This document shows, piece after piece, positions 183 to 36,416 of a DNA stretch of 37,281 bases; the stretch's first letter is position 1; every line of letters begins with the position of its first letter. Position numbers and translations under genes: made by a program. The stretch is from Ruminococcus sp. (GTDB lineage Bacteria > Bacillota > Clostridia > Oscillospirales > Acutalibacteraceae). The notes beneath the pieces are model-generated. The model was not told the DNA's origin, did not search any database, and saw only the letters and a list, made by a program, of their open reading frames with translations. Location of the stretch: positions 1 through 37,281 of the forward strand of contig JAMPDR010000017.1 in NCBI GenBank assembly GCA_023665555.1, given 5' to 3'.

Positions 183-2933
183 TTAATAGTGTGCCACACC
201 GCAAGAGCAAGTCTTGTTGATTCCAAACAACTTCCAGAACAGACGAATTATCTTGTAGATGAAGCCTGCAAAGCCGCCTTTGTGGCAGATGTGGTCACAG
301 GTGTCTGATGGGTTAGATGCTACAATGTCAGAACCGCAAATGTCACACTTGCCGTCGTTGTTGTTGTCGGTGTGGTTTAACATCGGCGGAATCACTTCTG
401 TGTATGTATCTCCGCAAAGTGAGCAGGTGTAAGTTGTTTCACCTTTTTCTGTGCAACTTGGTTGTTTTGTGATTTTCGAAGAATAAGAATGTTGATGTGG
501 AATTTCATTATATATAATATCAATATTCTTATCATCAATACCATCTGTTTCAGTTTCGATGTGAGTATTTATACTATCAGCTTCAATTGTAGATGAATCA
601 TCATCTTTAACAGACAGCGATAAAGTGTTCCCATCAATAATATTACTCTGTACCTTAACAGCATAGTCCGCTTCAATATTTTGAGCCGCAATTTCAATCT
701 TGTCATTTGAGTTATCTTTACAAATTGCTGTAATTGTTGCTTCATCAAAATCAAATATAATCTCTGCATTATTAGGTTGTGCCGAGAAAAATGTCTTTTC
801 ACTCATTGCAAGAACTTCGGAATCCTCTGAGATAACTTTTAATTTTGTGTAATCATCTGTATAGAATGTGCCTGATGTTATATTATTTTCAAAGTTACTG
901 TTAAACCTAACTTTATATTCACAGTTATCGGCTATATATTCAACTTCTCCATTTGTAATTTTCAATAATGTTTTATCATTGGTTGAATCCAATACTTTGA
1001 TATTTGAACCAAAAATATTAAGTTGTATTTTTTTATACCACAAATTTAAAGTTGACGTAAAATATGATTTATCAAGAAGAGATACATCATAAAACCAAAT
1101 TGATCTTCCTGTCAGATTACCCGTACCAACCTGTAACAAAGCATGGTATTTTGAACCAAATTGAATTTTATCATTTGCATAATATTGCCACTCAGTTGTA
1201 GTTGGATTTATTAATAAATATGAATCTGAACGTTTATATTCTTTAGTTGGGTTTGAAAGTTTATCACTGTTCTTTGGTGAATTTGAATCATATGCTGACA
1301 GACAATACCAGCCATCACCAATATCTTTCGGTTTAAAGTCGTTCGTTAAAACCATCGTATGACCATCGCCGGTTGATGCCATATTGACGATAATAGGACT
1401 GCCTGTTCCGTTTGTAAAGTGTTCAATTAGCTTTGAATAGTCTGAATTATTTTCAAAAACTTCACACTTAGAGAATTCAACTGAATCTTGAGATATAAAT
1501 GCATTTTCAATAGTTTCTATTATTGCTTCATTTCCCTCTACGCTAAAGCACTGTTCATTACTGTCTGTTGTATGTATTTTTTCATAGCCATAATCGTATA
1601 AGTATTTGCCACTGTTTGAAAAATATGTTGATAAATCAATAAGCCCATAATAGTTTGCCGCAGAAAGAAGCGCTAAGCCAAAACAGTTTCCGTTCCATGG
1701 TTTAATTTGACTTAATGGTGTTGTTACAAGCGAGCTTATATTATATCCGTATAGATCAAAATATCTTGACCATGGTATTCTGTAATTCTCAGGATATCCA
1801 TATGAGTATGAATCGTTTGTAAGGCACCAACCATATGTTTCTGAATATGTATCATCTTTCTCATCTTCACTACTAACCCATTCACTCAATTCAGTGTCAG
1901 ATTTCAACTCGGCAAGTTTGCAAGCCGGCCGAACGCCATCACAAGTACTGCTGACAATATTGGCGTTATTAGAGTAGCCATAGCTAGTGACTTCGCACGC
2001 ATAATCAGAACTGTAATTAGGCGAACGGAGCCACCACGGAGAATTTCCGTTATAGGTTGAACTTGAACTTGAACTTCTATACACATAAAGTCCTTGGCAC
2101 TTTGCATAATCTGTTCCCTGTGCTCTTCTGGCTATGTCATATGTTAATGCATTTGAACTAAATCCGTATGCACTTGTTTTTGCTTCATCATGTGAAAGAA
2201 GAAAGATTTTATCTTTTGTTGATGCTGAGTTATATTGTGGATATGATGAACTATAACAATCATTATTAAGCGTTGTTGTTTTTATGTTTGATTTTTGTCC
2301 TGCACTGAATACTGTGTTATAAAAATCATCATTAAGCCAATCTCTGATTGACGATTTCGCATAATCATTTGCATAGGTTGTTTTTGTTGTATCTTGATAG
2401 TAATAATTTGAGTAATAATAAACCGTATTCTGATATGCCTGTGAATCTATAATACTTTCGCACATTATCAAACCTGTGCTTGGGTCAAGTACCCGCCATT
2501 TTAACGGCTCATATTTAAACCAATATGTATTGTTTACATAATAATCATTATCATCTTGATAACTGTTTACAGATGAATGTGTATAACCAGTCCAATATGG
2601 TCTATATTGTGTAAACTTTACTGCTCTGTATCTGCTTGAGCCGAGATCAACATCTCGATACTGCATATAATCTGACGGCTGCATTTTGCCGTCAGACAAA
2701 TTGCCTGTGCCTGAGTAATAGTTATATGATATCCACGGTGTACTCGTCGCATTGAGTTGACTTATAAGAGCACCATACACTCTACTCTGTGGATAATTAC
2801 CAAACTCAATGATGTCGCCAACCTCATAATCCACCGCACTCGCCTTTGTTCCAATTTCACCCACAGGCAAACCGCAAACGCACATCACAACAACGACCAT
2901 ACATGCAAGAGCCCTTTTAAATCTTTTTCCCAC
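183..2933 (-). CDS. Secreted DUF6273 protein with cysteine-peptidase-like domain and CHKGGF...HY tail
   Basis: This 916-residue protein is predicted to be exported: a basic, hydrophobic signal peptide spans about residues 1-33. Residues about 36-345 resemble DUF6273 (VGDIIEFGNYPQS, the YEPLKWRVLD box, SIRDWLN, KIFLLS), a domain of unknown function common in Clostridia surface proteins. A second domain at about 390-560 has a papain-like order of candidate catalytic residues: Cys417 in GNCFGLA, His525 in DGHTMVL and Asp549 in AYDSNSP. This triad is inferred, not shown. Near the C-terminus lies a Cys-rich ribbon (CTEKGETTYTC..CG, then CDICG). The last 38 residues (879-916) form a tail with CHKGGF, GFIYKI, FWKLF and terminal HY, shared with the 1701-residue protein at 25558-30663. 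The start is GTG at 2933, with GGAGGT nine bases upstream. It is transcribed alone and is divergent from the XRE gene at 3346. Confidence 0.85.
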   Translation of the reverse strand: MGKRFKRALACMVVVVMCVCGLPVGEIGTKASAVDYEVGDIIEFGNYPQSRVYGALISQLNATSTPWISYNYYSGTGNLSDGKMQPSDYMQYRDVDLGSSRYRAVKFTQYRPYWTGYTHSSVNSYQDDNDYYVNNTYWFKYEPLKWRVLDPSTGLIMCESIIDSQAYQNTVYYYSNYYYQDTTKTTYANDYAKSSIRDWLNDDFYNTVFSAGQKSNIKTTTLNNDCYSSSYPQYNSASTKDKIFLLSHDEAKTSAYGFSSNALTYDIARRAQGTDYAKCQGLYVYRSSSSSSTYNGNSPWWLRSPNYSSDYACEVTSYGYSNNANIVSSTCDGVRPACKLAELKSDTELSEWVSSEDEKDDTYSETYGWCLTNDSYSYGYPENYRIPWSRYFDLYGYNISSLVTTPLSQIKPWNGNCFGLALLSAANYYGLIDLSTYFSNSGKYLYDYGYEKIHTTDSNEQCFSVEGNEAIIETIENAFISQDSVEFSKCEVFENNSDYSKLIEHFTNGTGSPIIVNMASTGDGHTMVLTNDFKPKDIGDGWYCLSAYDSNSPKNSDKLSNPTKEYKRSDSYLLINPTTTEWQYYANDKIQFGSKYHALLQVGTGNLTGRSIWFYDVSLLDKSYFTSTLNLWYKKIQLNIFGSNIKVLDSTNDKTLLKITNGEVEYIADNCEYKVRFNSNFENNITSGTFYTDDYTKLKVISEDSEVLAMSEKTFFSAQPNNAEIIFDFDEATITAICKDNSNDKIEIAAQNIEADYAVKVQSNIIDGNTLSLSVKDDDSSTIEADSINTHIETETDGIDDKNIDIIYNEIPHQHSYSSKITKQPSCTEKGETTYTCSLCGDTYTEVIPPMLNHTDNNNDGKCDICGSDIVASNPSDTCDHICHKGGFAGFIYKIIRLFWKLFGINKTCSCGVAHY

Positions 2934-3345: not shown

Positions 3346-3570
3346 ATGTATGAGCGCATCCGAGCATTGAGGGAGGATAAAGACCTGCTGCAAAAGGACA
3401 TTGCAAAATACCTTAACTGCACACAGGTCGCCTATTCAAGATACGAACTCGGTCAGCGTGACATACCAACCCAAACCTTGATCTCCCTTGCCAAGCTATA
3501 TAACACCAGCATTGACTATCTGCTGAATCTGACAGATGAAAAAGACGCATACCCAAGAGGAAAACAATAA
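3346..3570 (+). CDS. Small XRE-family helix-turn-helix regulator
   Basis: This 74-residue protein is almost entirely a Cro/C1-type HTH domain: helices over about residues 2-62, with the pattern QKDIAKYLNCTQVAYSRYE for helices 2-3 and the usual SIDYLLNLTD end. No second domain is present, so it probably dimerises through the HTH itself. The ATG at 3346 is chosen because GGAG at 3333-3336 lies nine bases upstream. The longer TTG (3328) and ATG (3337) starts lack a ribosome binding site. The twin palindromes directly upstream suggest it represses its own gene and perhaps the divergent secreted-protein gene. A terminator follows the stop codon immediately. Confidence 0.85.
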   Translation: MYERIRALREDKDLLQKDIAKYLNCTQVAYSRYELGQRDIPTQTLISLAKLYNTSIDYLLNLTDEKDAYPRGKQ

Positions 3571-5186: not shown

Positions 5187-5669
5187 TCAGATTTTGATGT
5201 CAGGGAAAATTTCGCCAATTCTCAGGAAATCGAAAATTGCCTGGAAAAGACTGTCAAATGCATCAGCAAATCTCTTGATAATGTTTTGGAAAACCATTGT
5301 TAAGGTCTGCTGCTGGCCGGGTGTAAGAATCGGATCACCGTTGTTCTTATCAACTACTTCTTTAGTGTTGCAACAATCATGACCGCATCTGCACGGCCAA
5401 ATGCCTGTACATTCATCACAGCAAAATGAATTTTCAAAATCAATATTGCCCTTGCTGTCAACTACAACGCAATCTGTCAGATATCTTTTGTCAAGATATT
5501 TACAATAAATGCAGCAATGACATGCGCCTTTTTCTGCTATGCAATCCTCGCAGCCGCATGTGCACTCATCTGCTACTGCGGTTGTTTCTTCAGCAAAAAC
5601 ACCAAGACTCACTGCAAAGCATGAGAACATCATCATAACGGCAAGAATAACTGCCAATGTTTTTTTCAT
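5187..5669 (-). CDS. Small secreted protein with 16 cysteines
   Basis: This is a 160-residue protein of no family I recognise. Residues 1-26 are a clear signal peptide (MKK, hydrophobic core, cut near VFA-EE). The exported part carries sixteen cysteines between residues 36 and 100, in clusters CTCGCEDC, CHCCIYC, CCDEC and CRCGHDCC, mixed with His and Asp. Such spacing could bind metal or form many disulfides. Residues 124-160 contain no Cys and form a hydrophobic amphipathic segment (VFQNIIKRF..FQAIFDFLRI). The AGGAGG site precedes ATG 5669 by eight bases. It has its own promoter and terminator, so it is a single-gene transcript downstream of icd. The role is unknown; a surface metal-binding protein is one guess. 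Confidence 0.8.
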   Translation of the reverse strand: MKKTLAVILAVMMMFSCFAVSLGVFAEETTAVADECTCGCEDCIAEKGACHCCIYCKYLDKRYLTDCVVVDSKGNIDFENSFCCDECTGIWPCRCGHDCCNTKEVVDKNNGDPILTPGQQQTLTMVFQNIIKRFADAFDSLFQAIFDFLRIGEIFPDIKI

Positions 5670-8982: not shown

Positions 8983-9343
8983 GACGAAATACGTTCGGCT
9001 ATAGTAAGTCTGTTCACCATAACCATAGAGATTCAAAACGGCCGGGGCTTTGTCGGCTGTCTTTATTTATAGTCTTATTGGAAGATCGTTTTAATCATCA
9101 TTTATTTAAAAATAATACAAACGGTAAGGTTGTAAACTCCATAACTTAATGTAATGACATTGCCCTATGAAATAGCTGCGAACGCAGTGAGCAATTTCGC
9201 TTGACGCAGTCAAATTTAGTTGCGTAAGCAATTTAGCTATGCGAAGCATAATTTAGCTGCTTTAGCCTTCTCTGCGAACTATTGCTCACGATAAGCACAA
9301 TTTCCCACCGCAATTACGCATTAAGCATTACGAATTACGCATT

Positions 9344-9369
9344 AAAAAAGCAGCCGCTTGAGCAGCTGC
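9344..9369 (-). terminator. Terminator of peptide gene 1
   Basis: On the - strand GCAGCTGC-TCAA-GCGGCTGC is followed by TTTTTT. Confidence 0.9.
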
Positions 9370-9391
9370 ATGGGTATACGTGGTAGTTCGA

Positions 9392-9535
9392 TTACCATCT
9401 GATACCAAACTTGTAAAGAAGCTTTGCAAGAACTACTTTGAGTCTTTCAATAAGCTCTACAAGCCATTCGGGTCCGTTAATGCTCGGAGAGGTGAAGCCC
9501 TCGTCGATTACAAGATCTGTTGTTGTTTCGTTCAT
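9392..9535 (-). CDS. Short amphipathic peptide, paralog 1 of 4 (47 residues)
   Basis: This is the most divergent of four paralogous peptide genes. The N-terminal half is polar and acidic (begins MNETTTDLVIDEG). The C-terminal half starts at Trp24 and forms a predicted amphipathic, basic helix ending AKLLYKFGIRW. Conserved with the other copies are the Trp followed by a hydrophobic residue, LI three to four residues later, KLL-x-K-F-G and a C-terminal basic residue. AAAGGAGA lies nine bases before the ATG. It has its own promoter (9584-9613) and terminator (9344-9369). There is no signal peptide and no recognised family. It could be a leaderless bacteriocin-like or phenol-soluble-modulin-like peptide, or a signalling peptide; none of these is shown. 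Confidence 0.8.
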   Translation of the reverse strand: MNETTTDLVIDEGFTSPSINGPEWLVELIERLKVVLAKLLYKFGIRW

Positions 9536-9583
9536 CGTAAGAATCTCCTTTCCTAAGTCAGCCGACTTAATTTTTATGATTCA

Positions 9584-9613
9584 AGTATACCCCGATAAAG
9601 CGACACATGTCAA
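9584..9613 (-). promoter_or_regulatory. Promoter of peptide gene 1
   Basis: On the - strand: TTGACA (9608-9613), an 18-base spacer and TATACT (9584-9589). Upstream is CTTTTAATTTGAC, shared with peptide gene 2, and a further upstream TTAATATAATTGAA block. Confidence 0.85.
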
Positions 9614-9684
9614 ATTAAAAGTAATTCAATTATATTAAGCGATTATACAAACCTATTAAAACTTTTTAATTCAGCTGAGCATCT

Positions 9685-9721
9685 CTAAAAAATAACAGAC
9701 CCGCATCACTGCGAGTCTGTT
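9685..9721 (-). terminator. Terminator of peptide gene 2
   Basis: On the - strand AACAGACTCGCA pairs with TGCGGGTCTGTT, followed by ATTTTTT. The hairpin is nearly identical to that of peptide gene 4 (10312-10347), which points to gene duplication with the terminator included. Confidence 0.92.
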
Positions 9722-9736
9722 ATGTAAGCTTTTTAA

Positions 9737-9862
9737 TTAGCCAAGTTTGATACCGAACTTGAGGAGAAGCTTAGAAATAACCTTCATGATCTTAGCGATA
9801 AGCTTTGTGAACCAATTCATTTCTACTACTTCTTCTTCTACCGGATTTGTTGTTGTTGTCAT
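9737..9862 (-). CDS. Short amphipathic peptide, paralog 2 of 4 (41 residues)
   Basis: The N-terminus is polar then acidic (MTTTTNPVEEEVVE). From Asn16-Trp17 a basic amphipathic helix runs to the end, finishing SKLLLKFGIKLG, with Lys spaced every three to four residues between hydrophobic ones. The core is closest to paralog 4: the segment LIAKIMKVI is identical in both. AAAGGAGA precedes the ATG. A TTGACT-18-TATACT promoter and a strong terminator make it an independent transcript. It is too short for most automatic gene finders, but the promoter, ribosome binding site, conserved paralogs and terminator together argue that it is expressed. The function is unknown. Confidence 0.85.
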   Translation of the reverse strand: MTTTTNPVEEEVVEMNWFTKLIAKIMKVISKLLLKFGIKLG

Positions 9863-9896
9863 AGTACTAATCTCCTTTCTATAATTTAGTAATTTA

Positions 9897-9926
9897 AGTA
9901 TACGCTATTAAAAGCACTTAAGTCAA
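9897..9926 (-). promoter_or_regulatory. Promoter of peptide gene 2
   Basis: On the - strand: TTGACT (9921-9926), an 18-base spacer and TATACT (9897-9902). CTTTTTAATTTGAC overlaps the -35 as in gene 1, and TTAATATATCTGAA lies further upstream. Confidence 0.85.
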
Positions 9927-10010
9927 ATTAAAAAGAGTTCAGATATATTAAAAACAATTAATTATATTTTTTAATTATATTAAAACGCTTTTAAAAACTA
10001 AAAAACACAT

Positions 10011-10043
10011 AAAAAAGGCGAACCCACTTACTGTAGATCCGCC
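10011..10043 (-). terminator. Terminator of peptide gene 3
   Basis: On the - strand GGCGGATCTAC pairs with GTGGGTTCGCC (G-U pairs and one mismatch), followed by TTTTTT. Confidence 0.85.
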
Positions 10044-10064
10044 GTCTAAGCAACTTTGTAAAAC

Positions 10065-10205
10065 TTATAAGCCAAGTTTGAAACCGAACTTAATAAGAAG
10101 CTTCATGATAACCTGTCTGAGTCTTGCAATAAGTTCTGTGAACCAGTTTTTCTCTGTGAGATCAGCCGGTGTGAGTGTTGCGTTTGTTACGCCTGTTGTT
10201 TCCAT
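10065..10205 (-). CDS. Short amphipathic peptide, paralog 3 of 4 (46 residues)
   Basis: It starts METTGVTNATLTPADLTEK; the METTGVT start is shared exactly with paralog 4. From Asn20-Trp21 the core reads NWFTELIARLRQVI then MKLLIKFGFKLGL, keeping the WFT-x-LIA and KLL-x-KFG positions but with Arg in place of Lys. GGAGA precedes the ATG. The gene has its own TTGACT-18-TATACT promoter and a terminator. The conserved N-terminus with a variable middle and conserved helix suggests a leader-like part and a core part, although no common cleavage motif is visible across the four copies. Confidence 0.85.
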   Translation of the reverse strand: METTGVTNATLTPADLTEKNWFTELIARLRQVIMKLLIKFGFKLGL

Positions 10206-10238
10206 TTCGTAAAATCTCCTTCCTTATTTGGTAATTTC

Positions 10239-10268
10239 AGTATAATCTATTACCATCTGAAAAGTCAA
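10239..10268 (-). promoter_or_regulatory. Promoter of peptide gene 3
   Basis: On the - strand: TTGACT (10263-10268), an 18-base spacer and TATACT (10239-10244). CATTTTAATTGAC overlaps the -35, a one-base-shorter form of the block in genes 1 and 2; GCTTAATAAAC lies upstream. Confidence 0.82.
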
Positions 10269-10311
10269 TTAAAATGTATTTTTGTTTATTAAGCAAAATT
10301 AAATGATGCTA

Positions 10312-10347
10312 TAAAAATAACAGACCCGCATTTACTGCGAGCCTGTT
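10312..10347 (-). terminator. Terminator of peptide gene 4
   Basis: On the - strand AACAGGCTCGCA pairs with TGCGGGTCTGTT, followed by ATTTTTAT. It is nearly the same hairpin as at 9685-9721. Confidence 0.9.
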
Positions 10348-10361
10348 ATGTAATGATTAAA

Positions 10362-10493
10362 TTAGCCAAGTTTAATGCCGAGCTTTGTGAGAAGCTTTAC
10401 AATAACCTTCATGATCTTAGCGATAAGATCTGTGAACCAATTACCGCCTTCTGCCGGCTCAAGAACTGCAGCTGTTACGCCTGTTGTTTCCAT
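10362..10493 (-). CDS. Short amphipathic peptide, paralog 4 of 4 (43 residues)
   Basis: It starts METTGVTAAVLEPAEGG, followed by the core NWFTDLIAKIMKVI and VKLLTKLGIKLG. This is the only copy with Gly-Gly directly before the conserved Asn-Trp. That resembles a double-glycine leader junction, but the other three lack it, so cleavage there is doubtful. AAAGGAGA lies before the ATG. It is the copy nearest the XRE regulator and has the best promoter of the set. No transporter, immunity gene, modification enzyme or protease gene is in the immediate surroundings. Its function is unknown. Confidence 0.85.
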   Translation of the reverse strand: METTGVTAAVLEPAEGGNWFTDLIAKIMKVIVKLLTKLGIKLG

Positions 10494-10549
10494 TGTAAAA
10501 TTCTCCTTTCGTAAATTTTTGAGTTTCAGATTACTCTGCCTCTGATTAA

Positions 10550-10578
10550 ATAATAGTACAAAAATTAATAAATGTCAA
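10550..10578 (-). promoter_or_regulatory. Promoter of peptide gene 4
   Basis: On the - strand: TTGACA (10573-10578), a 17-base spacer and TATTAT (10550-10555). A CTTAATAAA stretch sits just upstream of the -35, as near gene 3. The 5' leader is about 50 bases. Confidence 0.85.
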
Positions 10579-10632
10579 GATTTATTAAGAAAAAATTAAA
10601 AAATATATTTAAATTTACTCAACATTTATCAG

Positions 10633-11034
10633 TTAGTCAACATCTTCACTGTCAAAAAGGCCCTTGCAGCGTTCTTTTGTGAAATTTCTGACATATTCAA
10701 TAAGTTCAGAACGGCTGTTGTTATCAAGAATGCGACAGCACATAAGCACTGTTTTTTCTTCCTTACCAAGATAAGCAATCGGATCAACACATGCCGCAAC
10801 CTTTATTTCACTATTCGTATCATTGTTTATCTCTCTTACATCAGAAACACCAATCAAATAATCAACTGAAACATTATATAACTTTGAAAGTATGCGCAGG
10901 CTGTTTAAAGTCGGATTTGAGGTACCCTTTTCATAAATTGTATATGTTGTTCGATCAACACCTAATGTAGCTGCAACATCCTTCTGTGTAAATTTACGTT
11001 CTTCTCTCAATTGACGCAAGCGCTCACCAAGCAT
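10633..11034 (-). CDS. XRE-family regulator beside the peptide genes
   Basis: This 133-residue protein has an N-terminal Cro/C1-type HTH domain (about residues 3-60; FTQKDVAATLGVDRTTYTIYE, LYNVSVDYLIGVSD). A C-terminal region of about 70 residues has no recognised fold (ends RSELIEYVRNFTKE and an acidic tail). It is too short to carry the TPR repeats of Rgg/PlcR-type peptide receptors. The ATG at 11034 is chosen because AAGGTGG precedes it; the longer frame to 11133 runs through the promoter. It lies upstream of, and on the same strand as, the four peptide genes, with no clear terminator between it and gene 4. It is the obvious candidate for their control (inference). Confidence 0.88.
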   Translation of the reverse strand: MLGERLRQLREERKFTQKDVAATLGVDRTTYTIYEKGTSNPTLNSLRILSKLYNVSVDYLIGVSDVREINNDTNSEIKVAACVDPIAYLGKEEKTVLMCCRILDNNSRSELIEYVRNFTKERCKGLFDSEDVD

Positions 11035-11174: not shown

Positions 11175-13019
11175 TTACTGCTTCTTTTCACTGAAATACT
11201 CAACAATATTTTTTGCATCCTTTTTTGAAATACCTTTAATAGCTGACAGTTCATCTTCTGTTGCCGTTTTAATTTTCGTTACTGTCTTAAGTTCTTTAAT
11301 AAGAAGTCTTGCTTTCTTCTCGCCTATACCCTCAACCTCTGTAAGTTTTGAATAAATTGAAGATTTGCTATGCTTTTTTTTGTGATAAGTAATTGCAAAA
11401 CGGTGCACCTCTTCCTGAATGGAGGAAACCAGCGTAAATACTCTTCTTCCGTCATTGATTGCAATTTCATGTCCCTCTGCCGCAATAGCTCTGGTTCTGT
11501 GCTTGTTATCCTTAACCATACCGAATACAGGTATATCAAACCCGAATGCTTCAACAACCGGCAAAACAGCATTAACCTGTCCCTGTCCGCCGTCAAGAAG
11601 AATTAAGTCCGGAAGTCTGCCGAATCCCTCGCCGCTGTCTTTTTCCTCAACATATCTGTTAAGTCTGCGGCTGATAACCTCACGCATCGAACCATAATCA
11701 TCTTGACCGTCAAAACCCTTAATTGCAAAACGACGGTAAGCCGACTTATACGGCCGTCCATCCTTAAACACTACCATACCCGCAACATTATCTGCACCTG
11801 CGGTATGCGAAATGTCATACGACTCAATAAATTCCGGAACTTTTTTCAGTCCGAGCAGTTTTGCCAATTCATCAAGTGCGGCGGTTTCATTACCTTTTCT
11901 GCCGATATACATACCGAGTTTTTGCGATGCATTGCTCAGGCACATATCTGATAATCTTGCTGTTTCACCCTTTTGCGGCATCATAATTTCAACTTTCTTT
12001 CCGCGTTTTTCTTCAAGGAAACGAATCAACAACGGCTCATCGGATACCTCACCATCAACAATAATTTTCGGCGGTATCTCCCTGTTCATCGAATAGTAAG
12101 ACATCAGCAGCTGACGTCTTGTATCCGGCAGATTTTCCGATGCATCAAAGATGAAATGATCTGTTCCGCAGAGCAATCCATTATTAAAGTTAAGCACAGC
12201 AAGGCAAGCTTTTTCACTGCTTTGTGCAATTGCAAAAACATCCTGTTGCTTTGCATTTTTGCAAACAACCTTTTGCTTGCTGCCGATTTTTTCAATCGAC
12301 TTTATCCTATCTCTCAACTTCGCGGCTTTTTCAAATTCAAGGTTTTCAGCAGCCTGCTCCATCTGCTTTGTTAATTTAGCAATAGTATCGCGGCTTCCGC
12401 CTTTGATAAATTCAACAGCCTGTGACAGATTTTCTTCATACTCCTGTCTGCTGATTTTTCCCGCGCACGGAGCACTGCATCGTGAAATAAAGAAATTAAG
12501 GCACGGCCTGCTTTTTTTTATATCTCTCGGAAACTGCTTTGCACATGTGGGCAGTTTAAAAATCTCTTTCGCCTGTTCAACAGATTGCGTCACAGAGTAA
12601 TTCCCGGTATACGGTCCGAGATATGTCGCACTTTCATCATCCTTGCGAAAACATGCACTGATGTTTCCCCATGGATTCGGCGAAATTTTAATATAGCTGT
12701 ATCCCTTATCATCCTTAAGTAAAATATTATACTTCGGCATGTTCTGCTTGATCAAGCTACATTCAAGCACAAGCGCTTCAAACTCACTGTCAGTCAGAAT
12801 ATAGTCAAAATCGTCAACATTTTCAACCATTTTTCTAACCTTGGCATTGTGACCGTTCTGCGAACCGAAATATTGACTTACGCGGTTTTTCAATGCCTTT
12901 GCTTTGCCGATATAAATAATTTTTCCGCTTTTGTTTTTCATTATATAAACGCCCGGTGTAAGCGGCAGCTTCATTGCTTTTTCACGCAGTTGGCGCATTT
13001 TAGGGTTTAACGGCATCAT
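11175..13019 (-). CDS. uvrC: Excinuclease ABC subunit C
   Basis: UvrC makes both incisions around a DNA lesion in nucleotide excision repair, after UvrA and UvrB load. The 614-residue length is standard. In order: the GIY-YIG nuclease domain (GVYIMKNKSGKIIYIGKA, about 23-40, through 97); the UVR motif that binds UvrB (EFEKAAKLRDRI, about 225-236); the RNase H-like nuclease (YDISHTAGADNVAGMVVF onward, about 400-540); and C-terminal helix-hairpin-helix motifs (VEGIGEKKARLL and IKGISKKDAKNI). Two adjacent ATG codons (13019, 13016) follow AGGTG; the second has slightly better spacing. No uvrA or uvrB is in the window. It appears to be a single-gene unit. Confidence 0.97.
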   Translation of the reverse strand: MMPLNPKMRQLREKAMKLPLTPGVYIMKNKSGKIIYIGKAKALKNRVSQYFGSQNGHNAKVRKMVENVDDFDYILTDSEFEALVLECSLIKQNMPKYNILLKDDKGYSYIKISPNPWGNISACFRKDDESATYLGPYTGNYSVTQSVEQAKEIFKLPTCAKQFPRDIKKSRPCLNFFISRCSAPCAGKISRQEYEENLSQAVEFIKGGSRDTIAKLTKQMEQAAENLEFEKAAKLRDRIKSIEKIGSKQKVVCKNAKQQDVFAIAQSSEKACLAVLNFNNGLLCGTDHFIFDASENLPDTRRQLLMSYYSMNREIPPKIIVDGEVSDEPLLIRFLEEKRGKKVEIMMPQKGETARLSDMCLSNASQKLGMYIGRKGNETAALDELAKLLGLKKVPEFIESYDISHTAGADNVAGMVVFKDGRPYKSAYRRFAIKGFDGQDDYGSMREVISRRLNRYVEEKDSGEGFGRLPDLILLDGGQGQVNAVLPVVEAFGFDIPVFGMVKDNKHRTRAIAAEGHEIAINDGRRVFTLVSSIQEEVHRFAITYHKKKHSKSSIYSKLTEVEGIGEKKARLLIKELKTVTKIKTATEDELSAIKGISKKDAKNIVEYFSEKKQ

Positions 13020-25557: not shown

Positions 25558-28500
25558 TTAATAATGCTGAGCACCGCATGCACAAGTCTGATTGATTCTG
25601 AAGAGTTTCCAGAATACAAGAACAATCTTATAAATGAAGCCTACAAAACCGCCCTTATGGCACATATGTGAGCAAGTGTCCGGTGTAACATCATCACCCG
25701 GATCCGGCTGCGGATTCATAGCTTTGTTCAATTCATTAAGAATTGACAATGCATTATCAATATATTTCTTGACATCTGATTTTGCAAAGATATTGAGAGC
25801 CTCTTCAATTGCTCCTGTGATCAAAATCTTGAGCGGAACTCCGGCTTCAACACCGGTGTTCAGTCCGTAGAATACGTAGTAGAGAACTTTAAGAATCTGA
25901 TCGGGAACTGCAATTTCAGCAAGAGCATGGAGCGTTTCTGAAATGTTTTCAATCTGAGCATCTGTAAGTCTTTCGTTGTTAGCTACAATATATTCCATAA
26001 CCTTATCAACATTGTCTGCAAAAACAACTGTGCTGATTACTGTTCTGAGAAGAACTGTGATAAATTCAGGTGTCAGTGCTTCGTCAACAGAAATATATGT
26101 TGCTGTCTTACCATTTGCTGATGTGTATTCAGTTGCTGTGCCAAGAGCCTTAATTGCTGTTTTAACTTCTGAATAGCCGGCCGGAGTAAGACCCTTACTT
26201 GCCAAAGCATCGCTGAGAATCTGATCAAGGTTGAGGTTGATCGTAAGATCAAGGTCATAGATCGGACGGATAACATCAAGAACTACATATACAGGTTCAA
26301 GAATGTTGTTAACTGCAATCTGAAGTCCGCCGAATTCAATGAAGTAAACGATGTTCGGAAGTAAACCGACGATACCATTGATCGGATCATCTGAAATCTT
26401 GTCAATGAGTGCAAGAATCGGATTGAGAACAGCCTTAATCATTGCTTCATCATCGAGTTTAACGAAGTCAGCATACTTTGTGATGTTTGCAGGGTCACAG
26501 CCGATTGCTTCGAGAATCGGAATAAGAGCGTTGTCATATCCGTTGTAGCCGAGGATTTCGATTGCGTCAGCGATTACAAGTTCGCTGTTATCTGCGCTGT
26601 CAACAAGGAGAAGCTTGAGAACAGGAACGATCGGAGCAACATATTCAACAACTGCGTTTACAAATGCATCTCTGTCGCCGTCCTCAAAATCGGGAACTTC
26701 ATAACCTGCGAGAGCTGCAAGTGTATCCTTAACGTCGATATTAACGAGCGGATCAACGATGTCGATAATTGACTTGATGGTTGCGTTTTCATCAACCTTT
26801 GCAAGAAGTCCGTTAACAAGGTCAACAAGGCTAACGAGATTTGCCTTTGTGTAAAGGTTTGAAAGAAGATTTGCAACAACATCGCCAACTTCATAACCAA
26901 GAAGATATGCAAGGTTAACTACGAAGGTATCAAGATTTGAAGAAACATATTCTGCATCTTCCTTTGTCCACCAAAGTGAATATTGAACTGCCTGACCGTA
27001 ATTCGCTTCGTATTCTTCAAGTTCTTTAAGCTGCTCAGGTGTAAGCTGAGTACGGTCGATGTCTGCGAACGGATCACCTTTTTCAACCGGAACAAATTCC
27101 TGATATTCAAAAGTTTTCTGTTCATATTTTTCTGCGTTGATAAGTTCAACGAGAGAGGCAATTACATCACCAGTTGACTTAATGCCAAGAGATGCAATTG
27201 TTGAAGTAATATTATTAACTGTTTCTTCGTTGCTTATAAACTTAGCAAGAAGAGTCTTAAGAGCATCTTCATTCTTAAGAAGTTCAACAACATATGTGAG
27301 AACATAGTATGCAACACCTGCTTTATCCGCTGCAACTGTGTATGCTTTGCCATCTGCAAGGTCAAGTTTTGAAGTGTCATAGATGTAGTCACTTCTCTGA
27401 GTATCGATTTCTGCAAGAGAACCGAGGGTTGCAACTGTGATTGCATCAATTTCCGGAATCTGAATTCCAACAAGGTCAAGGATTCCCTGAAGGCCCTTTG
27501 AAAGATCAACACCCATTGATTTAAGGTTGATCATGTCGCCAACATTGATGTCAATTGCATCTTTAAGAACATCTGATGCAGTACCGCTACCTTTTACAAG
27601 GCCTGCTGCGCTATAGCTGTAATCAGCCTCTGCTGCGTATGAGATGTTGGTCTTGAGCATTCCGAGAAGCGGAGTAACCATGTCGGTTGAAAGCGCATAC
27701 ATGAGATTCGGAAGGATCGAAAGAACTGTATCAACCGGAGCCTTAGCAACCTTAGTCAAAAGAGCTTCAACAGGATCAAGGAGTCCTTTTTCAACGAAGT
27801 CAGCAACTGAAGTGAATGTGTTACCGTTCGGAGCGGTTACACCAAGTGCTTCAAGAACAGGAGCAACAAGGTTGTTGTAGCCTTCGTTTGCACTTGCTGT
27901 AAGTCTGAGATTAACAGCAGAAATCGAAATGTTAACGTCAACCGTAATTAAAACAGTAGCTGTTGCGCCCGAAGCTGTTGCATCACCGATTTTTACACCA
28001 TTATTATCAGGATTCATTGCTTGATTGCTGAGAAGAGCAAGAAGAAGAGGTTCCAAGCCTGAAAGAGCCGCATCTGCTGCTGCAATAAAGGTTTCCTTAT
28101 CTTTTACGCCCCATTTAAGAGCAAGTTTACCATTCTCATCGCAGATTGCTGAATCTTCCCAAGGATTGTTCTCAGCTGTTGCTGCGCTTGTTGCTTTTGC
28201 AAGTGTTGCTGCAACCTCAGGATAGCTTTCCTCAAGGTTCTTAGCAAGGGTTGACGGGAACAGAGCAAGCCCCATGCTCTGAGTTGCTTTTTCAACAGTG
28301 TCAAGGTTAAGTTTGATTGTAACAATATCATTATTCAGCATATCATTGAGGCTTTTACCTTCCATATACATAGTAGGATCGATGCCATCCCAAACCTTAA
28401 TGAACTCATTTGCAATGAGAGGATAGAGGTACTGAACGATAAGGTTAATGATATCGTCACTGTAAACCATATCGAGAACGCCTGTAATTGTTTTACCAAG

Positions 28501-30663
28501 GTCGATACCGGCAAGGTCAGCGAACTTATCGCCTGCGAGGAATGAATCAAGCTTTGTAATTGTATCAAGAAGTTTATCTTCTTTTACATCATACTTTTCA
28601 GTTTTAACCTGATCGTTTACATATACGTCACGTGATGCATATGTAAGTTTTGTTGTTACAAAGTTGCTCAAGCCGAATGTAGCTTTGAATGTTGAATAGC
28701 TTGTAAATGCTTTGTTCTGCAAGTATTCATATTTTTCAATTGTTTCAGCTGAAAGCAAATCGCCCTTTGATGTATCATTGAGATAACCGTAAATAGCATC
28801 TTCAAGGTTATCAAAAGCTCCGCTGAGTTTTGAATAATCTTTAAGTGAAAGGTCAGTCGGCTCACCAAGAGCAACATAGAGATCATAAGCGAAGTTTACT
28901 TCTGCTGTGAAACGAGCAGCAAGTGTATCATAAAGATCAGCGGCAACTTCTGCTGCTTCTGCAACAATAGCACCAAGAAGTTCTTCTGCTCTTTCTTCGC
29001 CTGAATCTTCTGCAAGAGCAGCCTTGAATGCATTAAGTCCTGCAAGTTTTTCAGGATCTGCGTTGATAGCTTCAATGATTGCATCAGTTGACATATCAAC
29101 ATAAGATGAGTTTGTAAGTTCTGTGTAATAAACAACATATTCATTAACTACGCAGAAGAGTTTTTCCTGAAGGTCAAGAAGATTATCATATCCGTCAGGA
29201 TAGATTGTGTTTACAACCTGTTCGCTGTAGGTTCCGATTGAGTTAACGTAACCACAGATAAGTGAATAAGCTGCCTGCTTTTCGATTGTTGTAAAGTCTT
29301 GATATGTGTCAATTGTTGAACTGTAGAAGTCAGAAGCCTTTTCTGCTGTTGCAGCAAGATCATAAACCTTAACGTTATCCGTGAAATTATTATAATAATC
29401 AAGGCTGATGTTGCCGTACTTGTTGAGGTAGTTGAGAAGTTCGTTACCGCCTTTCTCAAGCTGTTTATAGATTTCCATGAATTCATGATATGCAGCAAAC
29501 ATTGAATCATATTCATATTCGCCGTAGTCGTAGATACCATAATTCGGATATTTATCAGTGAAAGCTTTCCACTGTTCAGCTATTTTAAGATATGTTTCAG
29601 CGTCCATTGCGCTTTCGCAGGATTTGATCAACTGATCGATCTTCTCAGTGTAATCTCCGAAAAGTGTGTTGTAAGTATCATCACCGCCAACATATTCAAC
29701 TGCTGCTGCAACAGTTTTTGTGAACTCACCGTAGTAATTACCCATGGTATTAGCCAATACCATGTTGAGCAATTCTTCATAGCTGATGCCGAAGTTAACA
29801 CCTGCAAGATAAGCAGCATGTTCATCGATCTTCTGCTTTGCTTCAGTATTGGTTACGGTTCCGACTTTAACAGCAATATCATCTGCATTGTTTTTATTCA
29901 CTACGTGATGATAATAGTCAGTATTTTCACTGCCGCATTGAGTTTTTGTTGTAATTCTATAATAGCCGCGGCTCATGCCTACCTGATAAGCTGAAGTCAT
30001 ATCAATTGACTGAGCAACTTCTGTGTAAGAATCCAAAGTTGCAAGATAGCCTTGATAGTCATCAGTTGTAACAACCAATGTATTGTAAAGCTTATTAGAA
30101 ACACCGTTTTCCTTCGTCGGCAAAGATTCAGTTTCTGTATGGATACGAGCATGTGACATATTGAACAGAATACCGAACAATGTTGCAACCTGATAATCGC
30201 TCATTTCAGCAGAAGTCATTGCACCTGATGATGTGAGAGAAGAAGTGATCTCCTTTGAAATATCTTCAAGGTTTTTACAGCCACCGGCAATTTCACACGA
30301 AGCGCCTGAAGCCTTATATGACTCTGAACCTTTGACAGCATTGTCAATCTTCTTCATGAGGTTAAGAATTTCAGTATACTGTGCATAGTCTTTTGCAGTA
30401 ACTGTCGTGGTGTACGTTTCTTCTAAGTTAGCACCGTTGCCGCTTGTCGTTCTCACCGGATTGGTGTGAGTACCATTGGTATAAGACGTCAAATTTTTAA
30501 CGGTGTCGCTTTTGAGTGCTGCGCCGAGTTCGGCAATGGCTGTGTTGTAATCAATTTCTTCAGCCGAAGTCATACCAAAGCACACAGAAACGCTGGTCAT
30601 AATCATGAGCATTGCAAGAACAACACTCAGGATTTTCTTGGACCTGATTTTGGTCTTTTTCAT
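25558..30663 (-). CDS. Giant secreted protein with internal repeats and CHKGGF...HY tail
   Basis: This 1701-residue protein is of no family I can name. The signal peptide is clear (about 1-33; IRSKKILSVVLAMLMIMTSV, then CFG). The body is acidic, Ala/Leu/Asn-rich and mostly helical. A block of about 90 residues occurs twice, near 925-1015 and 1368-1460. Shared positions are GY-[ND]-N..[AV]P[IV]LEA[LI]G, ..[TK]Y/VADFV, LP-N-[LI]-[MV]-Y, and a following [TVI]-x-LEP/LLG segment. The C-terminus has a Pro/Asp linker (PDPGDDVTPD), then the 38-residue tail (1664-1701) shared with the protein at 183-2933. ATG 30663 is chosen because AAGGAG precedes it by 12 bases and MKKTKIRSKK begins a normal signal peptide. 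A nearer ATG at 30675 overlaps the ribosome binding site. It is probably a cell-surface protein. Confidence 0.9.
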   Translation of the reverse strand: MKKTKIRSKKILSVVLAMLMIMTSVSVCFGMTSAEEIDYNTAIAELGAALKSDTVKNLTSYTNGTHTNPVRTTSGNGANLEETYTTTVTAKDYAQYTEILNLMKKIDNAVKGSESYKASGASCEIAGGCKNLEDISKEITSSLTSSGAMTSAEMSDYQVATLFGILFNMSHARIHTETESLPTKENGVSNKLYNTLVVTTDDYQGYLATLDSYTEVAQSIDMTSAYQVGMSRGYYRITTKTQCGSENTDYYHHVVNKNNADDIAVKVGTVTNTEAKQKIDEHAAYLAGVNFGISYEELLNMVLANTMGNYYGEFTKTVAAAVEYVGGDDTYNTLFGDYTEKIDQLIKSCESAMDAETYLKIAEQWKAFTDKYPNYGIYDYGEYEYDSMFAAYHEFMEIYKQLEKGGNELLNYLNKYGNISLDYYNNFTDNVKVYDLAATAEKASDFYSSTIDTYQDFTTIEKQAAYSLICGYVNSIGTYSEQVVNTIYPDGYDNLLDLQEKLFCVVNEYVVYYTELTNSSYVDMSTDAIIEAINADPEKLAGLNAFKAALAEDSGEERAEELLGAIVAEAAEVAADLYDTLAARFTAEVNFAYDLYVALGEPTDLSLKDYSKLSGAFDNLEDAIYGYLNDTSKGDLLSAETIEKYEYLQNKAFTSYSTFKATFGLSNFVTTKLTYASRDVYVNDQVKTEKYDVKEDKLLDTITKLDSFLAGDKFADLAGIDLGKTITGVLDMVYSDDIINLIVQYLYPLIANEFIKVWDGIDPTMYMEGKSLNDMLNNDIVTIKLNLDTVEKATQSMGLALFPSTLAKNLEESYPEVAATLAKATSAATAENNPWEDSAICDENGKLALKWGVKDKETFIAAADAALSGLEPLLLALLSNQAMNPDNNGVKIGDATASGATATVLITVDVNISISAVNLRLTASANEGYNNLVAPVLEALGVTAPNGNTFTSVADFVEKGLLDPVEALLTKVAKAPVDTVLSILPNLMYALSTDMVTPLLGMLKTNISYAAEADYSYSAAGLVKGSGTASDVLKDAIDINVGDMINLKSMGVDLSKGLQGILDLVGIQIPEIDAITVATLGSLAEIDTQRSDYIYDTSKLDLADGKAYTVAADKAGVAYYVLTYVVELLKNEDALKTLLAKFISNEETVNNITSTIASLGIKSTGDVIASLVELINAEKYEQKTFEYQEFVPVEKGDPFADIDRTQLTPEQLKELEEYEANYGQAVQYSLWWTKEDAEYVSSNLDTFVVNLAYLLGYEVGDVVANLLSNLYTKANLVSLVDLVNGLLAKVDENATIKSIIDIVDPLVNIDVKDTLAALAGYEVPDFEDGDRDAFVNAVVEYVAPIVPVLKLLLVDSADNSELVIADAIEILGYNGYDNALIPILEAIGCDPANITKYADFVKLDDEAMIKAVLNPILALIDKISDDPINGIVGLLPNIVYFIEFGGLQIAVNNILEPVYVVLDVIRPIYDLDLTINLNLDQILSDALASKGLTPAGYSEVKTAIKALGTATEYTSANGKTATYISVDEALTPEFITVLLRTVISTVVFADNVDKVMEYIVANNERLTDAQIENISETLHALAEIAVPDQILKVLYYVFYGLNTGVEAGVPLKILITGAIEEALNIFAKSDVKKYIDNALSILNELNKAMNPQPDPGDDVTPDTCSHMCHKGGFVGFIYKIVLVFWKLFRINQTCACGAQHY

Positions 30664-30999
30664 TTGGGTTTGCATCTCCTTTTCATTAAATAAGCGTGTA
30701 TCGATAAAAAATTCACGGTTTTCTTCATACGACACTCCACTGTTATGGTAATTATACACAAAGGGTTTATACTTTGATTTCTGTTTTAGAATTAAATATC
30801 ACAAATGTTACTTTAAAGAAGATTGTTTACAATTTGTTATTTATTTGATAAAAATTTATTAGCATTTACAGCCGCACGAAAATCAACATTTAGTTAACAT
30901 TTGTCGCATAATAGGTATTTGTATATTTTACACAAATGTTTTCCACGCAAAATGCGAACAACCCCGTTTCTTTTTCATTATAATATATATATTGTGTAT
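30664..30999. other. Upstream region of the giant secreted protein gene
   Basis: No gene is seen. It is AT-rich and likely holds the promoter: TATAAT occurs on the - strand at about 30751-30756, with no convincing -35 at the right distance. The rest carries no recognisable structure. Confidence 0.4.
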
Positions 31000-33896: not shown

Positions 33897-35066
33897 CTAC
33901 GAAACATATTTTGCCATCAGCTGTGCAAGTGATTTTCCAATACACTTACCCGTGAAATATGCTTCTTCAAGTGTATTTGAGTCGCTTCCGATTTCAAGAA
34001 GCAGTGATGTGTGAGTCAGATTCATATTGTAGCGTCTTGGACAGAAGAAAATCGGACGTGTCAAACCGGGAAAAGTTTCCTCCATCTCTTTTTGGAGATG
34101 TGTTGCAAAAACAAGGTTATAGCGCCAATCGGCAAAATTTTCAATGCCGTTGCCTTTTTCCTGACAGCCGCTGATGATCATAACCTGCGCCGCCTTTTTT
34201 CCGTTGATTGTTGCGGTCGGCTTAATTTTTACCCCATTTGTCTGCTGAATTGCATCACGGTGTATGTCAAGTGTAATCTGAATTGTCGGATACTTTTTCA
34301 GATATTCAACAACGGTTGCACGCGAGCGCTCATATGCCCCATTATACTTGGCATCGTGTATCGTTTTGTCATGCAGAACCACAAAACCCGCTTTTTCAAG
34401 CTGTTCACAGATTGCATCCCCCACTCTGACCATATTTCGGCTTTCATCCGTGTTCCGCGAAACATATCCCGTGGCATAGAAATTTCTGTCAATATACTGA
34501 TATGATTCCGTTGTGTGGGTGTGATAGATAAGCACAGCAGGCTTTGACTTATCTATACTCAAATCAACTTTTTCACTGAGCATTTGCTTTATATCAATTT
34601 TTGTGTCATTGGTATTTTTCACCTTAACACTTCCGTATTTATCGGTTACACCCTCGTTGACATATTGCTTTTCATAAATTGTGCCGTCCTTTTTGTCATT
34701 CTTTGTATTTTTCTTTGCCTGCTCAATCATTTTTTTAATATCATCCGGTGTTGTATAAAAATCATCATCCGTACTTTGCTTAGATGCTTTTACTGTTGTT
34801 TCGGCAGATTGCTTGGTGGTTGTTTCTTTGGCTTTGGTCGTATCTTCTTTTTCAGTTGTATTTTCGGTGTCACTTTTCTCGTCAGTCTGAGTTTCATCAT
34901 CAAAGGTTACCACTGCTGACGGCAGTAATCTTGCCGCACTCATAACAGCGATTTTTGCAGATGCACGCATAAGCTGACCGCTGAACCTAACCGTCAGCAA
35001 AACACAAATCGAAGCCAAGACAACTACGGCAGAAATCTTCAAAGCAAAGTTTTTTCGTTTATTCAT
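33897..35066 (-). CDS. spoIIP: Stage II sporulation protein P
   Basis: SpoIIP is a peptidoglycan amidase and endopeptidase that works with SpoIID and SpoIIM to thin the septal wall during engulfment of the forespore. The 389-residue protein has an N-terminal membrane anchor (about 8-28; LKISAVVVLASICVLLTV) and a long polar Thr/Glu/Lys-rich linker (about 55-105). The catalytic domain then has His182, His184 and Glu187 (YHTHTTESY), His269-Arg270-Asp271 (LDIHRDAI) and Glu366 (LLLEIGSDSNT). It follows gpr on the same strand, as in many Firmicutes, with a repeat in the 370-base gap. An AAAGGGC site precedes ATG 35066. Confidence 0.95.
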   Translation of the reverse strand: MNKRKNFALKISAVVVLASICVLLTVRFSGQLMRASAKIAVMSAARLLPSAVVTFDDETQTDEKSDTENTTEKEDTTKAKETTTKQSAETTVKASKQSTDDDFYTTPDDIKKMIEQAKKNTKNDKKDGTIYEKQYVNEGVTDKYGSVKVKNTNDTKIDIKQMLSEKVDLSIDKSKPAVLIYHTHTTESYQYIDRNFYATGYVSRNTDESRNMVRVGDAICEQLEKAGFVVLHDKTIHDAKYNGAYERSRATVVEYLKKYPTIQITLDIHRDAIQQTNGVKIKPTATINGKKAAQVMIISGCQEKGNGIENFADWRYNLVFATHLQKEMEETFPGLTRPIFFCPRRYNMNLTHTSLLLEIGSDSNTLEEAYFTGKCIGKSLAQLMAKYVS

Positions 35067-35129
35067 TTTAATTGCCCTTTCTTTGTTTTATCCACTAACA
35101 TATTTATGAAAGGACAAGCGCAAAAATGA

Positions 35130-35410
35130 TTGACAGATGAAATTAATAATGGACTTTAATTCAATGATGGCTTGATGAATTAGGAGTGAGGAGTGAGGAA
35201 TTAGGAGTTGCGGTCGCGTTATAAATATCAATAAATTTTTAATTATTAGTCCGCGAAATTAAGTTATATCTGATGGCTAGAGATTTATTATAATAACAAA
35301 CTCTAAAATAACTGCTATCTATCTCTGCGGTAACGGAACTGATAAACTGTTGCTCATTTCCCCGCAACCTTCGTTCCTCACTCCTAACTCCTCATTCCTC
35401 ATTATATTAA
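35130..35410. repeat. Family C element between gpr and spoIIP
   Basis: The left end at about 35178-35218 iterates TAGGAGTGAGGAGTGAGG and reaches GCGGTCGCG. The right end at 35364-35403 is its reverse-complement counterpart (CCCGCAACC, then TCCTCACTCC...). The stretch 35372-35403 is the exact reverse complement of 8658-8689. It fills the gap between the two sporulation genes. Confidence 0.75.
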
Positions 35411-35434
35411 CTCCACTCTCCATACTGTCAAAGT

Positions 35435-36325: not shown

Positions 36326-36416
36326 TTTTTCACTCCCAAACACTTGCAAAATTAATAAATTTATAGTATTATTGTTGTCACTTCTGAAAAAGTATATCCA
36401 AAGTTGCAAATTTTAC

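What the first reader, a model, noticed from the sequence alone, without database searches (positions are those of the whole stretch)
9344..11034. Cassette of four paralogous short amphipathic peptide genes next to an XRE regulator
Four genes of 41-47 codons stand in a row on one strand, each with ribosome binding site, promoter and terminator. All share the pattern W-[FL]-x2-LI-[AE]-[KR] ... KLL-x-K-[FL]-G-[IF]-[KR] in the C-terminal half, while the N-terminal halves vary in length and sequence. Copies 3 and 4 share METTGVT at the start; copies 2 and 4 share LIAKIMKVI. Conservation of protein pattern with divergent flanks, plus full expression signals, argues for real genes under selection. 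The adjacent XRE gene suggests a regulated peptide system (signalling, bacteriocin-like, surfactant-like or toxin). I know of no described family with this pattern.
Basis: partly seen in the sequence, partly recalled or inferred. Interest (0 to 1): 0.92.

Follow-up and report, generated by a model that had tools for sequence, protein, structure and literature searches.

The report
Genus-specific amphipathic surface peptides, four-gene cassette
An uncultured gut bacterium carries four neighbouring genes for tiny helical peptides that look made to stick to membranes; they belong to an apparently undescribed family that our searches found only in its genus, and a similar helix caps some of the enormous secreted proteins of these bacteria.

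Summary
Four leaderless 41-47 aa genes lie on the minus strand, each with its own SD site, consensus-like promoter and terminator, next to XRE and uvrC. They are real genes: a profile finds 23 members in 16 of 34 genomes of the genus (E <= 0.01) and none in 294 other sampled genomes of the order (E <= 0.001). The helix is under purifying selection (pN<pS in 91 of 91 non-independent pairs). No library match reached a curated cut-off where cut-offs were shown.

In six species the homolog starts with a Sec-type signal peptide, so the family works at or outside the membrane. The uvrC-XRE locus is a genus-wide site for small secreted proteins (24 of 27 loci), but 7 of 16 peptide-bearing genomes keep the peptide elsewhere without a detected XRE, so XRE control is unproven. 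The helix also resembles the extreme C-terminus of giant open frames (8-11.5 kaa in 16 of 34 genomes).

Best reading: envelope-acting amphipathic peptides that work like phenol-soluble modulins but are not members of that family. The mechanism is inferred.

The parts
9392..9535 (-). p1, leaderless peptide gene, 47 aa (acidic N segment -5, helix from W, net +3)
   Evidence: homologs
9737..9862 (-). p2, leaderless peptide gene, 41 aa (N segment -4, helix +6)
10065..10205 (-). p3, leaderless peptide gene, 46 aa (N segment -2, helix +4)
   Evidence: the open frame is only 52 codons, so there is no room for a signal peptide
10362..10493 (-). p4, leaderless peptide gene, 43 aa (N segment -3, helix +4)
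9584..9613 (-). promoter-like site of p1 (TTGACA-18-TATACT, 11 of 12)
9897..9926 (-). promoter-like site of p2 (TTGACT-18-TATACT, 10 of 12)
10239..10268 (-). promoter-like site of p3 (TTGACT-18-TATACT, 10 of 12)
10550..10578 (-). promoter-like site of p4 (TTGACA-17-TATTAT, 11 of 12)
9350..9369 (-). intrinsic terminator of p1
9692..9723 (-). intrinsic terminator of p2 (near-copy of that of p4)
10017..10043 (-). intrinsic terminator of p3
10317..10349 (-). intrinsic terminator of p4
10633..11034 (-). XRE-family regulator (HTH_3), 133 aa; orthologs lie beside uvrC across the genus
11175..13019 (-). uvrC, the conserved neighbour that marks the locus
5187..5669 (-). small Cys-rich secreted protein (family C) ending in an amphipathic helix; homologs lie downstream of XRE in congeners

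Best explanation
This is a genus-restricted family of short peptides made of an acidic, often Thr-rich, probably disordered N segment and a C-terminal cationic amphipathic helix that opens with an invariant Trp and carries Lys at i, i+4, i+8. Shown: real conserved genes; four tandem single-gene transcription units here; no signal peptide here but a Sec-type signal in six congeners. Inferred: the helix inserts into the membrane interface (Trp at the interface, Lys against anionic lipid) at the outer face, where the peptides coat the envelope and associate with each other and with secreted proteins that end in a similar helix. That is a surface-retention or surfactant role, working like phenol-soluble modulins. 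In this species the peptides would reach the outside by an unknown non-Sec route. XRE control is possible but not shown.
For: Conserved Trp and Lys ladder (W21, V32, K35, K39 invariant, K43 at least 90%). Acidic N segment plus cationic helix: helix charge positive in 23 of 23; N segment acidic in 20 of 23, the other three (G027b, G033b, G008) having a net-neutral stub of one or two residues. Purifying selection. Six signal-bearing versions with an AxA-type site, judged by eye and pattern, not by a signal predictor. Four separate promoters, SDs and terminators suggest high dosage. The uvrC-XRE locus carries other small secreted proteins (24 of 27), with SD-led leaderless peptides of other sequence types in 6 of those loci (L129-L131, L135, L137, L138). 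Resemblance of the helix to C-terminal tails of giant open frames: hhalign score 30.0, against a maximum of 24.4 in 200 pattern-keeping shuffles and 11.7 for the reversed tail. Precedent: LspU, a leaderless 21-aa amphipathic peptide that traps lipases at the cell surface (PMC12607899, abstract and discussion read).
Against: No export route for the leaderless forms was found: no ABC exporter among the 21 larger window proteins scanned, nor recognised beside the congeners' copies (read from ORFs, not annotated by profile; in G033 the two copies do lie beside two ABC ATPases of branched-chain amino acid importer type, name recalled). 18 of 34 genomes lack a match at E <= 0.01 (some are incomplete), so the function is dispensable. 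Amphipathicity beats shuffles in only two of the four window helices. The tail match was found by searching with this profile, so its score is inflated by selection. In contigs not chosen for tails, amphipathic C-tails were rare among roughly called secreted proteins (1 of 18, against 8 of 152 soluble). Sortase is present in 34 of 34 genomes, so tails are not a substitute for a missing sortase. No expression data.
Confidence: 0.45

Rival explanations
1. Leaderless (multi-peptide) bacteriocin: cationic helical peptides, active on translation, that permeabilise competitor membranes.
For: Length, cationic helix, Trp, no leader and several peptides together match the class as described (PMC6131525 passages; PMC11580447 passages).
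Against: No ABC exporter, PH-domain or Yip1-like protein among the 21 larger window proteins scanned with Pfam. No bacteriocin family match for p1, p2, p4 or p1-p4 in Pfam; the BLB8/JUQZ-1 bacteriocin model touches only the signal-peptide end of some signal-bearing homologs, far below its cut-off. Six homologs carry a Sec-type signal, which leaderless bacteriocins by definition lack. Each gene has its own terminator rather than forming an operon. The long acidic segment lowers net charge (whole p1 is -2, from -5 and +3). PH-domain partners are not present in all known clusters (PMC11580447 passage), so their absence is not decisive.
Confidence: 0.25
2. Type I toxin of a toxin-antitoxin pair: small amphipathic peptides that depolarise the producer's own membrane, held down by an antisense RNA.
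For: Short leaderless genes, tandem copies, and stand-alone copies in seven congeners. Two + strand promoter-like sites in the window point at the 3' ends of p2 (9607-9636, 9 of 12) and p3 (9856-9885, 11 of 12) and could in principle give antisense RNA; G028 has two weak ones (9 of 12) so placed.
Against: Signal-peptide versions at the same locus make no sense for a cytosolic self-toxin. No antisense-strand promoter-like site in the 700 bases around the gene in G009 or in G021, nor any placed to read directly into the 3' end of p1 or p4. The region is AT-rich and such sites are expected by chance (8.8 per shuffle). No Rfam match over its gathering score. Strong SDs and consensus promoters do not look like a silenced toxin.
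Confidence: 0.1
3. Peptide signal sensed by the neighbouring XRE regulator (quorum-sensing-like).
For: XRE and uvrC lie near the peptides here and in seven other species with the peptide.
Against: The XRE's matches over the curated cut-off are helix-turn-helix models only, with no TPR-type peptide-binding domain. XRE is conserved beside uvrC where the peptide is absent, and the peptide occurs without XRE. Amphipathic 28-49 aa helices under purifying selection are unlike short hydrophobic signals (recalled).
Confidence: 0.08
4. Free-standing copy of a C-terminal targeting or retention helix, acting as a competitor or adaptor for tail-bearing secreted proteins.
For: Helix profile resembles the tails of giant open frames beyond the amphipathic pattern; in the 18 loci where my pattern found the tail near a stop, it ends 3-4 residues before the stop.
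Against: Selection effect in how the tails were found; one search printed only matches within 60 residues of a stop; no shared locus; direct binding untested.
Confidence: 0.2

Closest known systems
Phenol-soluble modulins of staphylococci, including LspU (PMC12607899)
   Same: Leaderless, under 50 aa, amphipathic helix, several tandem genes; LspU retains secreted enzymes at the surface
   Different: No PSM model among the Pfam or NCBIfam matches (which PSM models the libraries hold was not checked); signal-peptide homologs exist; no ABC exporter among the window proteins scanned; acidic N segment and invariant Trp
Leaderless bacteriocins, aureocin A53/lacticin Q and enterocin L50 groups (PMC6131525, PMC11580447)
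   Same: Leaderless, cationic, helical, Trp-bearing, sometimes multi-peptide
   Different: No exporter or immunity neighbours found, signal-peptide homologs, one transcription unit per gene, no family match
Type I toxins such as TisB and Ldr (recalled)
   Same: Short, leaderless, multi-copy
   Different: No consistent antisense promoter; signal-peptide versions exist
C-terminal amphipathic membrane anchors such as that of PBP5 (recalled)
   Same: Amphipathic helix at the extreme C-terminus, as on the giant proteins here
   Different: Here the helix also occurs as an independent gene

Membership tests
Phenol-soluble modulins | sequence match to a described PSM family | tested here: not met
   No Pfam match up to E 1 for p1-p4, no PSM family among the matches of 18 members, none in the PDB chains; which PSM models the libraries hold was not checked
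Phenol-soluble modulins | no signal peptide | tested here: inconclusive
   Met by 17 of 23 members, not by 6 of 23 (judged by eye and pattern)
Phenol-soluble modulins | amphipathic helix | tested here: inconclusive
   p2 and p4 beat shuffles, p1 and p3 do not; structure prediction could not be run
Phenol-soluble modulins | dedicated ABC export and surfactant or biofilm activity | not testable with these tools
   No exporter among the window proteins scanned; activity needs the bench
Leaderless bacteriocins | no leader or signal | tested here: inconclusive
   True in the window (frames of 52-70 codons, with the SD at the short ATG), false in six congeners
Leaderless bacteriocins | exporter, PH-domain or other immunity partner nearby | tested here: not met
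   None in Pfam scans of the 21 larger window proteins of my list; not a strict requirement of the class
Leaderless bacteriocins | antibacterial activity | not testable with these tools
   needs synthetic peptide
Type I toxins | antisense RNA overlapping the mRNA | tested here: inconclusive
   Candidate sites opposite p2 and p3 and, weakly, in G028; none in G009 or G021; consensus scans only
Phage or plasmid cargo | relatives on phages or plasmids | tested here: not met
   No match of p3 in phages or plasmids; no confirmed relative in IMG/VR

The most novel reading that the evidence does not exclude
The peptides are free-standing versions of a modular C-terminal helix that this genus uses to hold very large secreted proteins (open frames of 8-11.5 kaa) at the cell surface. 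Tail and peptide co-assemble on the membrane, and the leaderless versus signal-bearing forms and the uvrC-XRE locus form a fast-evolving kit for tuning that surface layer.
Probability: 0.25. Interest if true: 0.8.

Novelty: new variant of a known kind. Interest (0 to 1): 0.58.

Why it matters
It adds a clear, selected, multi-copy small-protein family to an uncultured gut lineage, where such genes are easily missed. If the tail link is real, it would suggest how giant secreted proteins are held at the surface without a sortase signal, and that small peptides can be the detached form of such a signal. It is directly testable with synthetic peptides and reporter fusions in laboratory Bacillus.

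Tried and rejected
Homology to known families: Pfam, NCBIfam, PHROGs, PADLOC and PDB gave nothing usable for the peptides. The member tallies do list matches (best PF23379, 3.4e-5). Scanned one by one, five of the six signal-bearing members show that all Pfam and NCBIfam matches lie below the curated cut-offs and nearly all start within the signal peptide. Mobile origin: none found in IMG/VR, plasmids or phages. RNA element: no Rfam hit over its gathering score. Shared XRE operator: no common inverted repeat or motif recognised beyond the promoter itself; the resemblance of the p1-p3 promoter regions may simply be duplication. Tails because sortase is missing: rejected, sortase in 34 of 34 genomes. 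Amphipathic tails as a general mark of the secretome: overstated. A sample partly chosen for tails gave 19 of 40 signal-bearing proteins (soluble 3 of 100, membrane 1 of 27); contigs not chosen for tails, with a slightly stricter but still noisy signal caller, gave 1 of 18 (soluble 8 of 152); controls gave 0 of 18 (same family) and 1 of 15 (same order). Leader gain and loss: the tree of 23 helices (26 columns) needs two changes but has one strongly supported branch, so it settles nothing. The automatic peptide tag found 0 because my pattern was too strict; the 6 of 27 is read. One search also lists a leaderless ORF in L124 that I did not count. In one search only matches within 60 residues of a stop were printed (18 of 40 loci), and its pattern for the second tail type found nothing. 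One search scored at most 19 candidates per genome. Structure prediction was never run because the queue was full. Rows dropped: the weak hits at E > 0.01 (L021-L027, L031-L033, which are tails or chance) and L005; G024's short candidate (L022, E 0.03) was left out of the family. Papers: search listings only, except PMC6131525 and PMC11580447 (passages) and PMC12607899 (abstract, outline, discussion). That the family is not in print rests and the library scans only.
Full report
CHECK OF THE OBSERVATION. Each unit is complete: promoter TTGACA/T-17/18-TATACT or TATTAT, short 5' leader with a GGAG-containing SD, ORF, hairpin terminator. p2 and p4 have near-identical terminators and p1/p2 share promoter-region sequence (72% over 67 bases), so whole units were probably duplicated. 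A strict scan of the window for SD-preceded 20-110 aa ORFs outside 21 larger genes gives 8, four of them these. The frame of p3 (52 codons in all) cannot hide a signal peptide.

REALITY AND RANGE. A profile of the four (A1) and then of 18 members (A2) finds 23 members in 16 of 34 genomes of the genus at E <= 0.01. Of 295 genomes drawn from the order only the window's own matches at E <= 0.001, with at most 19 candidates scored per genome. The phage and plasmid collections gave no match for p3 and IMG/VR no confirmed relative. Named records found with the giant protein's C-terminus, not with the peptide, are all metagenome-assembled Oscillospiraceae or Clostridia; 11 of 17 titles name rectum or caecum of roe deer, cattle, buffalo, sheep or goat, and seven of the contigs have exactly the length of contigs of this genus. 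Among 14 of the 23 helices pN is below pS in 91 of 91 pairs (not independent); G009/G021 has dS 0.34, dN 0.03. The library scans named no family; matches of five signal-bearing members lie below the curated cut-offs and nearly all begin in the signal peptide.

ANATOMY. W21, V32, K35, K39 are invariant and K43 nearly so in alignments of 18 and 16 members. N segments are acidic in 20 of 23 and net neutral in three that have only one or two residues there; helices are cationic in 23 of 23. Seventeen members are leaderless (28-49 aa). Six, in G001, G010, G012, G016, G026 and G030, have a signal peptide (by eye and pattern), an AxA-type site, an acidic linker (-4 to -11) and the same helix. G026 has one of each kind. 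So the product acts at or beyond the membrane; which state is older is not resolved.

LOCUS. XRE orthologs were followed in the genus: 27 of 29 XRE loci read adjoin uvrC, and in 24 of 27 at least one small signal-bearing protein follows (the three without are L116, L124, L142). In 6 of 27 the present family follows (L117-L119, L125, L126, L136; read); the other 18 have family B (signal, acidic linker, Lys-rich amphipathic core) and several also family C (Cys-rich, ending in an amphipathic helix; the window's 5187-5669). Six loci also hold SD-led leaderless peptides of 29-48 aa of other sequence types, all six net negative by my count (L129-L131, L135, L137, L138). The cassette is thus one form of a genus-wide site for small amphipathic proteins. 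But 7 of 16 peptide-bearing genomes have the gene elsewhere, with no XRE or uvrC in the fetched stretch (G002, G003, G005, G008, G026, G030, G033; G026 lies at a contig end), and G028 has uvrC but no XRE detected. XRE control is therefore possible, not shown.

THE TAIL LINK. Weak hits of A1 at E 0.02-0.09 fell largely on C-termini of very long frames. A profile of these tails (A4, SLNWFQRLIKKIKEFFxKIF) has some match in 33 of 34 genomes at E <= 0.1, many of them weak; in 16 of 34 genomes a match lies in a frame of 8,291-11,580 codons (counted from its table). In the 18 of 40 loci where my pattern found a tail within 60 residues of a stop, it ends 3-4 residues before the stop. The same tail sits on a second, unlike protein (L021, L027). 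Profile comparison of A2 and A4 gives score 30.0; 0 of 200 shuffles that keep the hydrophobic pattern reach it (best 24.4), and the reversed tail gives 11.7. The caveat is that A4 was collected with A1, so this is inflated. A different tail type (CHKGGFxGFIYKI...FWKLF...CxCGxxHY) ends the two large secreted proteins of the window and occurs at 18 places in this genome and in 5 of 100 family genomes including this one. Tails are not shown to be general: 1 of 18 roughly called secreted proteins in unselected contigs.

MECHANISM. Shown: genes, selection, architecture, signal-bearing homologs, locus. Inferred: interfacial helix, outer-face action, abundance, association with tail-bearing proteins, unknown export of leaderless forms. 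The closest working analogue is the PSM group, notably LspU, which is leaderless, amphipathic and retains lipases at the surface (PMC12607899). Membership fails on sequence, and signal-bearing homologs are foreign to it. The leaderless-bacteriocin rival keeps 0.25: size, charge and Trp fit, but no exporter or immunity partner was found among 21 larger window proteins and the acidic segment offsets the charge. The type I toxin rival has two candidate antisense promoter sites here, opposite p2 and p3, but none in G009 or G021 and only weak ones in G028.

VERDICT. A real, genus-restricted, apparently undescribed small-peptide family; biologically plausible as envelope-active PSM-like peptides; the link to giant-protein tails is the most surprising and least certain part.

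Noticed in passing
L076 (G000 contig C43, near 27840-27917) and L056-L068, L071, L072, L075, L077, L080: In 16 of 34 genomes of the genus a profile of NWFQ-type amphipathic tails matches inside an open frame of 8,291-11,580 codons; where read, the tail ends 3-4 residues before the stop.
   Followed up: partly
window 183-2933 and 25558-30759 (C-termini): Two large secreted proteins end in the same CHKGGFxGFIYKI...FWKLFxINxTCxCGxxHY tail; 18 places in this genome, 5 of 100 family genomes.
   Followed up: partly
L129-L131, L135, L137, L138, downstream of XRE: Other SD-led leaderless 29-48 aa peptides, net negative and amphipathic-looking, alike in two groups of three species at the uvrC-XRE locus.
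   Followed up: partly
L114-L141, downstream of XRE: Family B and family C small secreted proteins at the uvrC-XRE locus; family C carries a Cys-rich N part.
   Followed up: partly
L155 6744-6869: Leaderless 41-aa Trp-rich peptide between family C and uvrC in G028.
   Followed up: no
window 3349-3546, strand +: A second, shorter XRE-like frame in the window.
   Followed up: no
window 9607-9636 and 9856-9885, strand +: Promoter-like sites pointing at the 3' ends of p2 and p3, possible antisense starts or chance in AT-rich DNA.
   Followed up: partly
window 9189-9259, strand -: Weak match to Gut-1 RNA (25.9 bits, gathering score 50, E 0.038) in an intergenic stretch.
   Followed up: no
window 33897-36409: SpoIIP and germination protease genes: the organism probably forms spores.
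   Followed up: no
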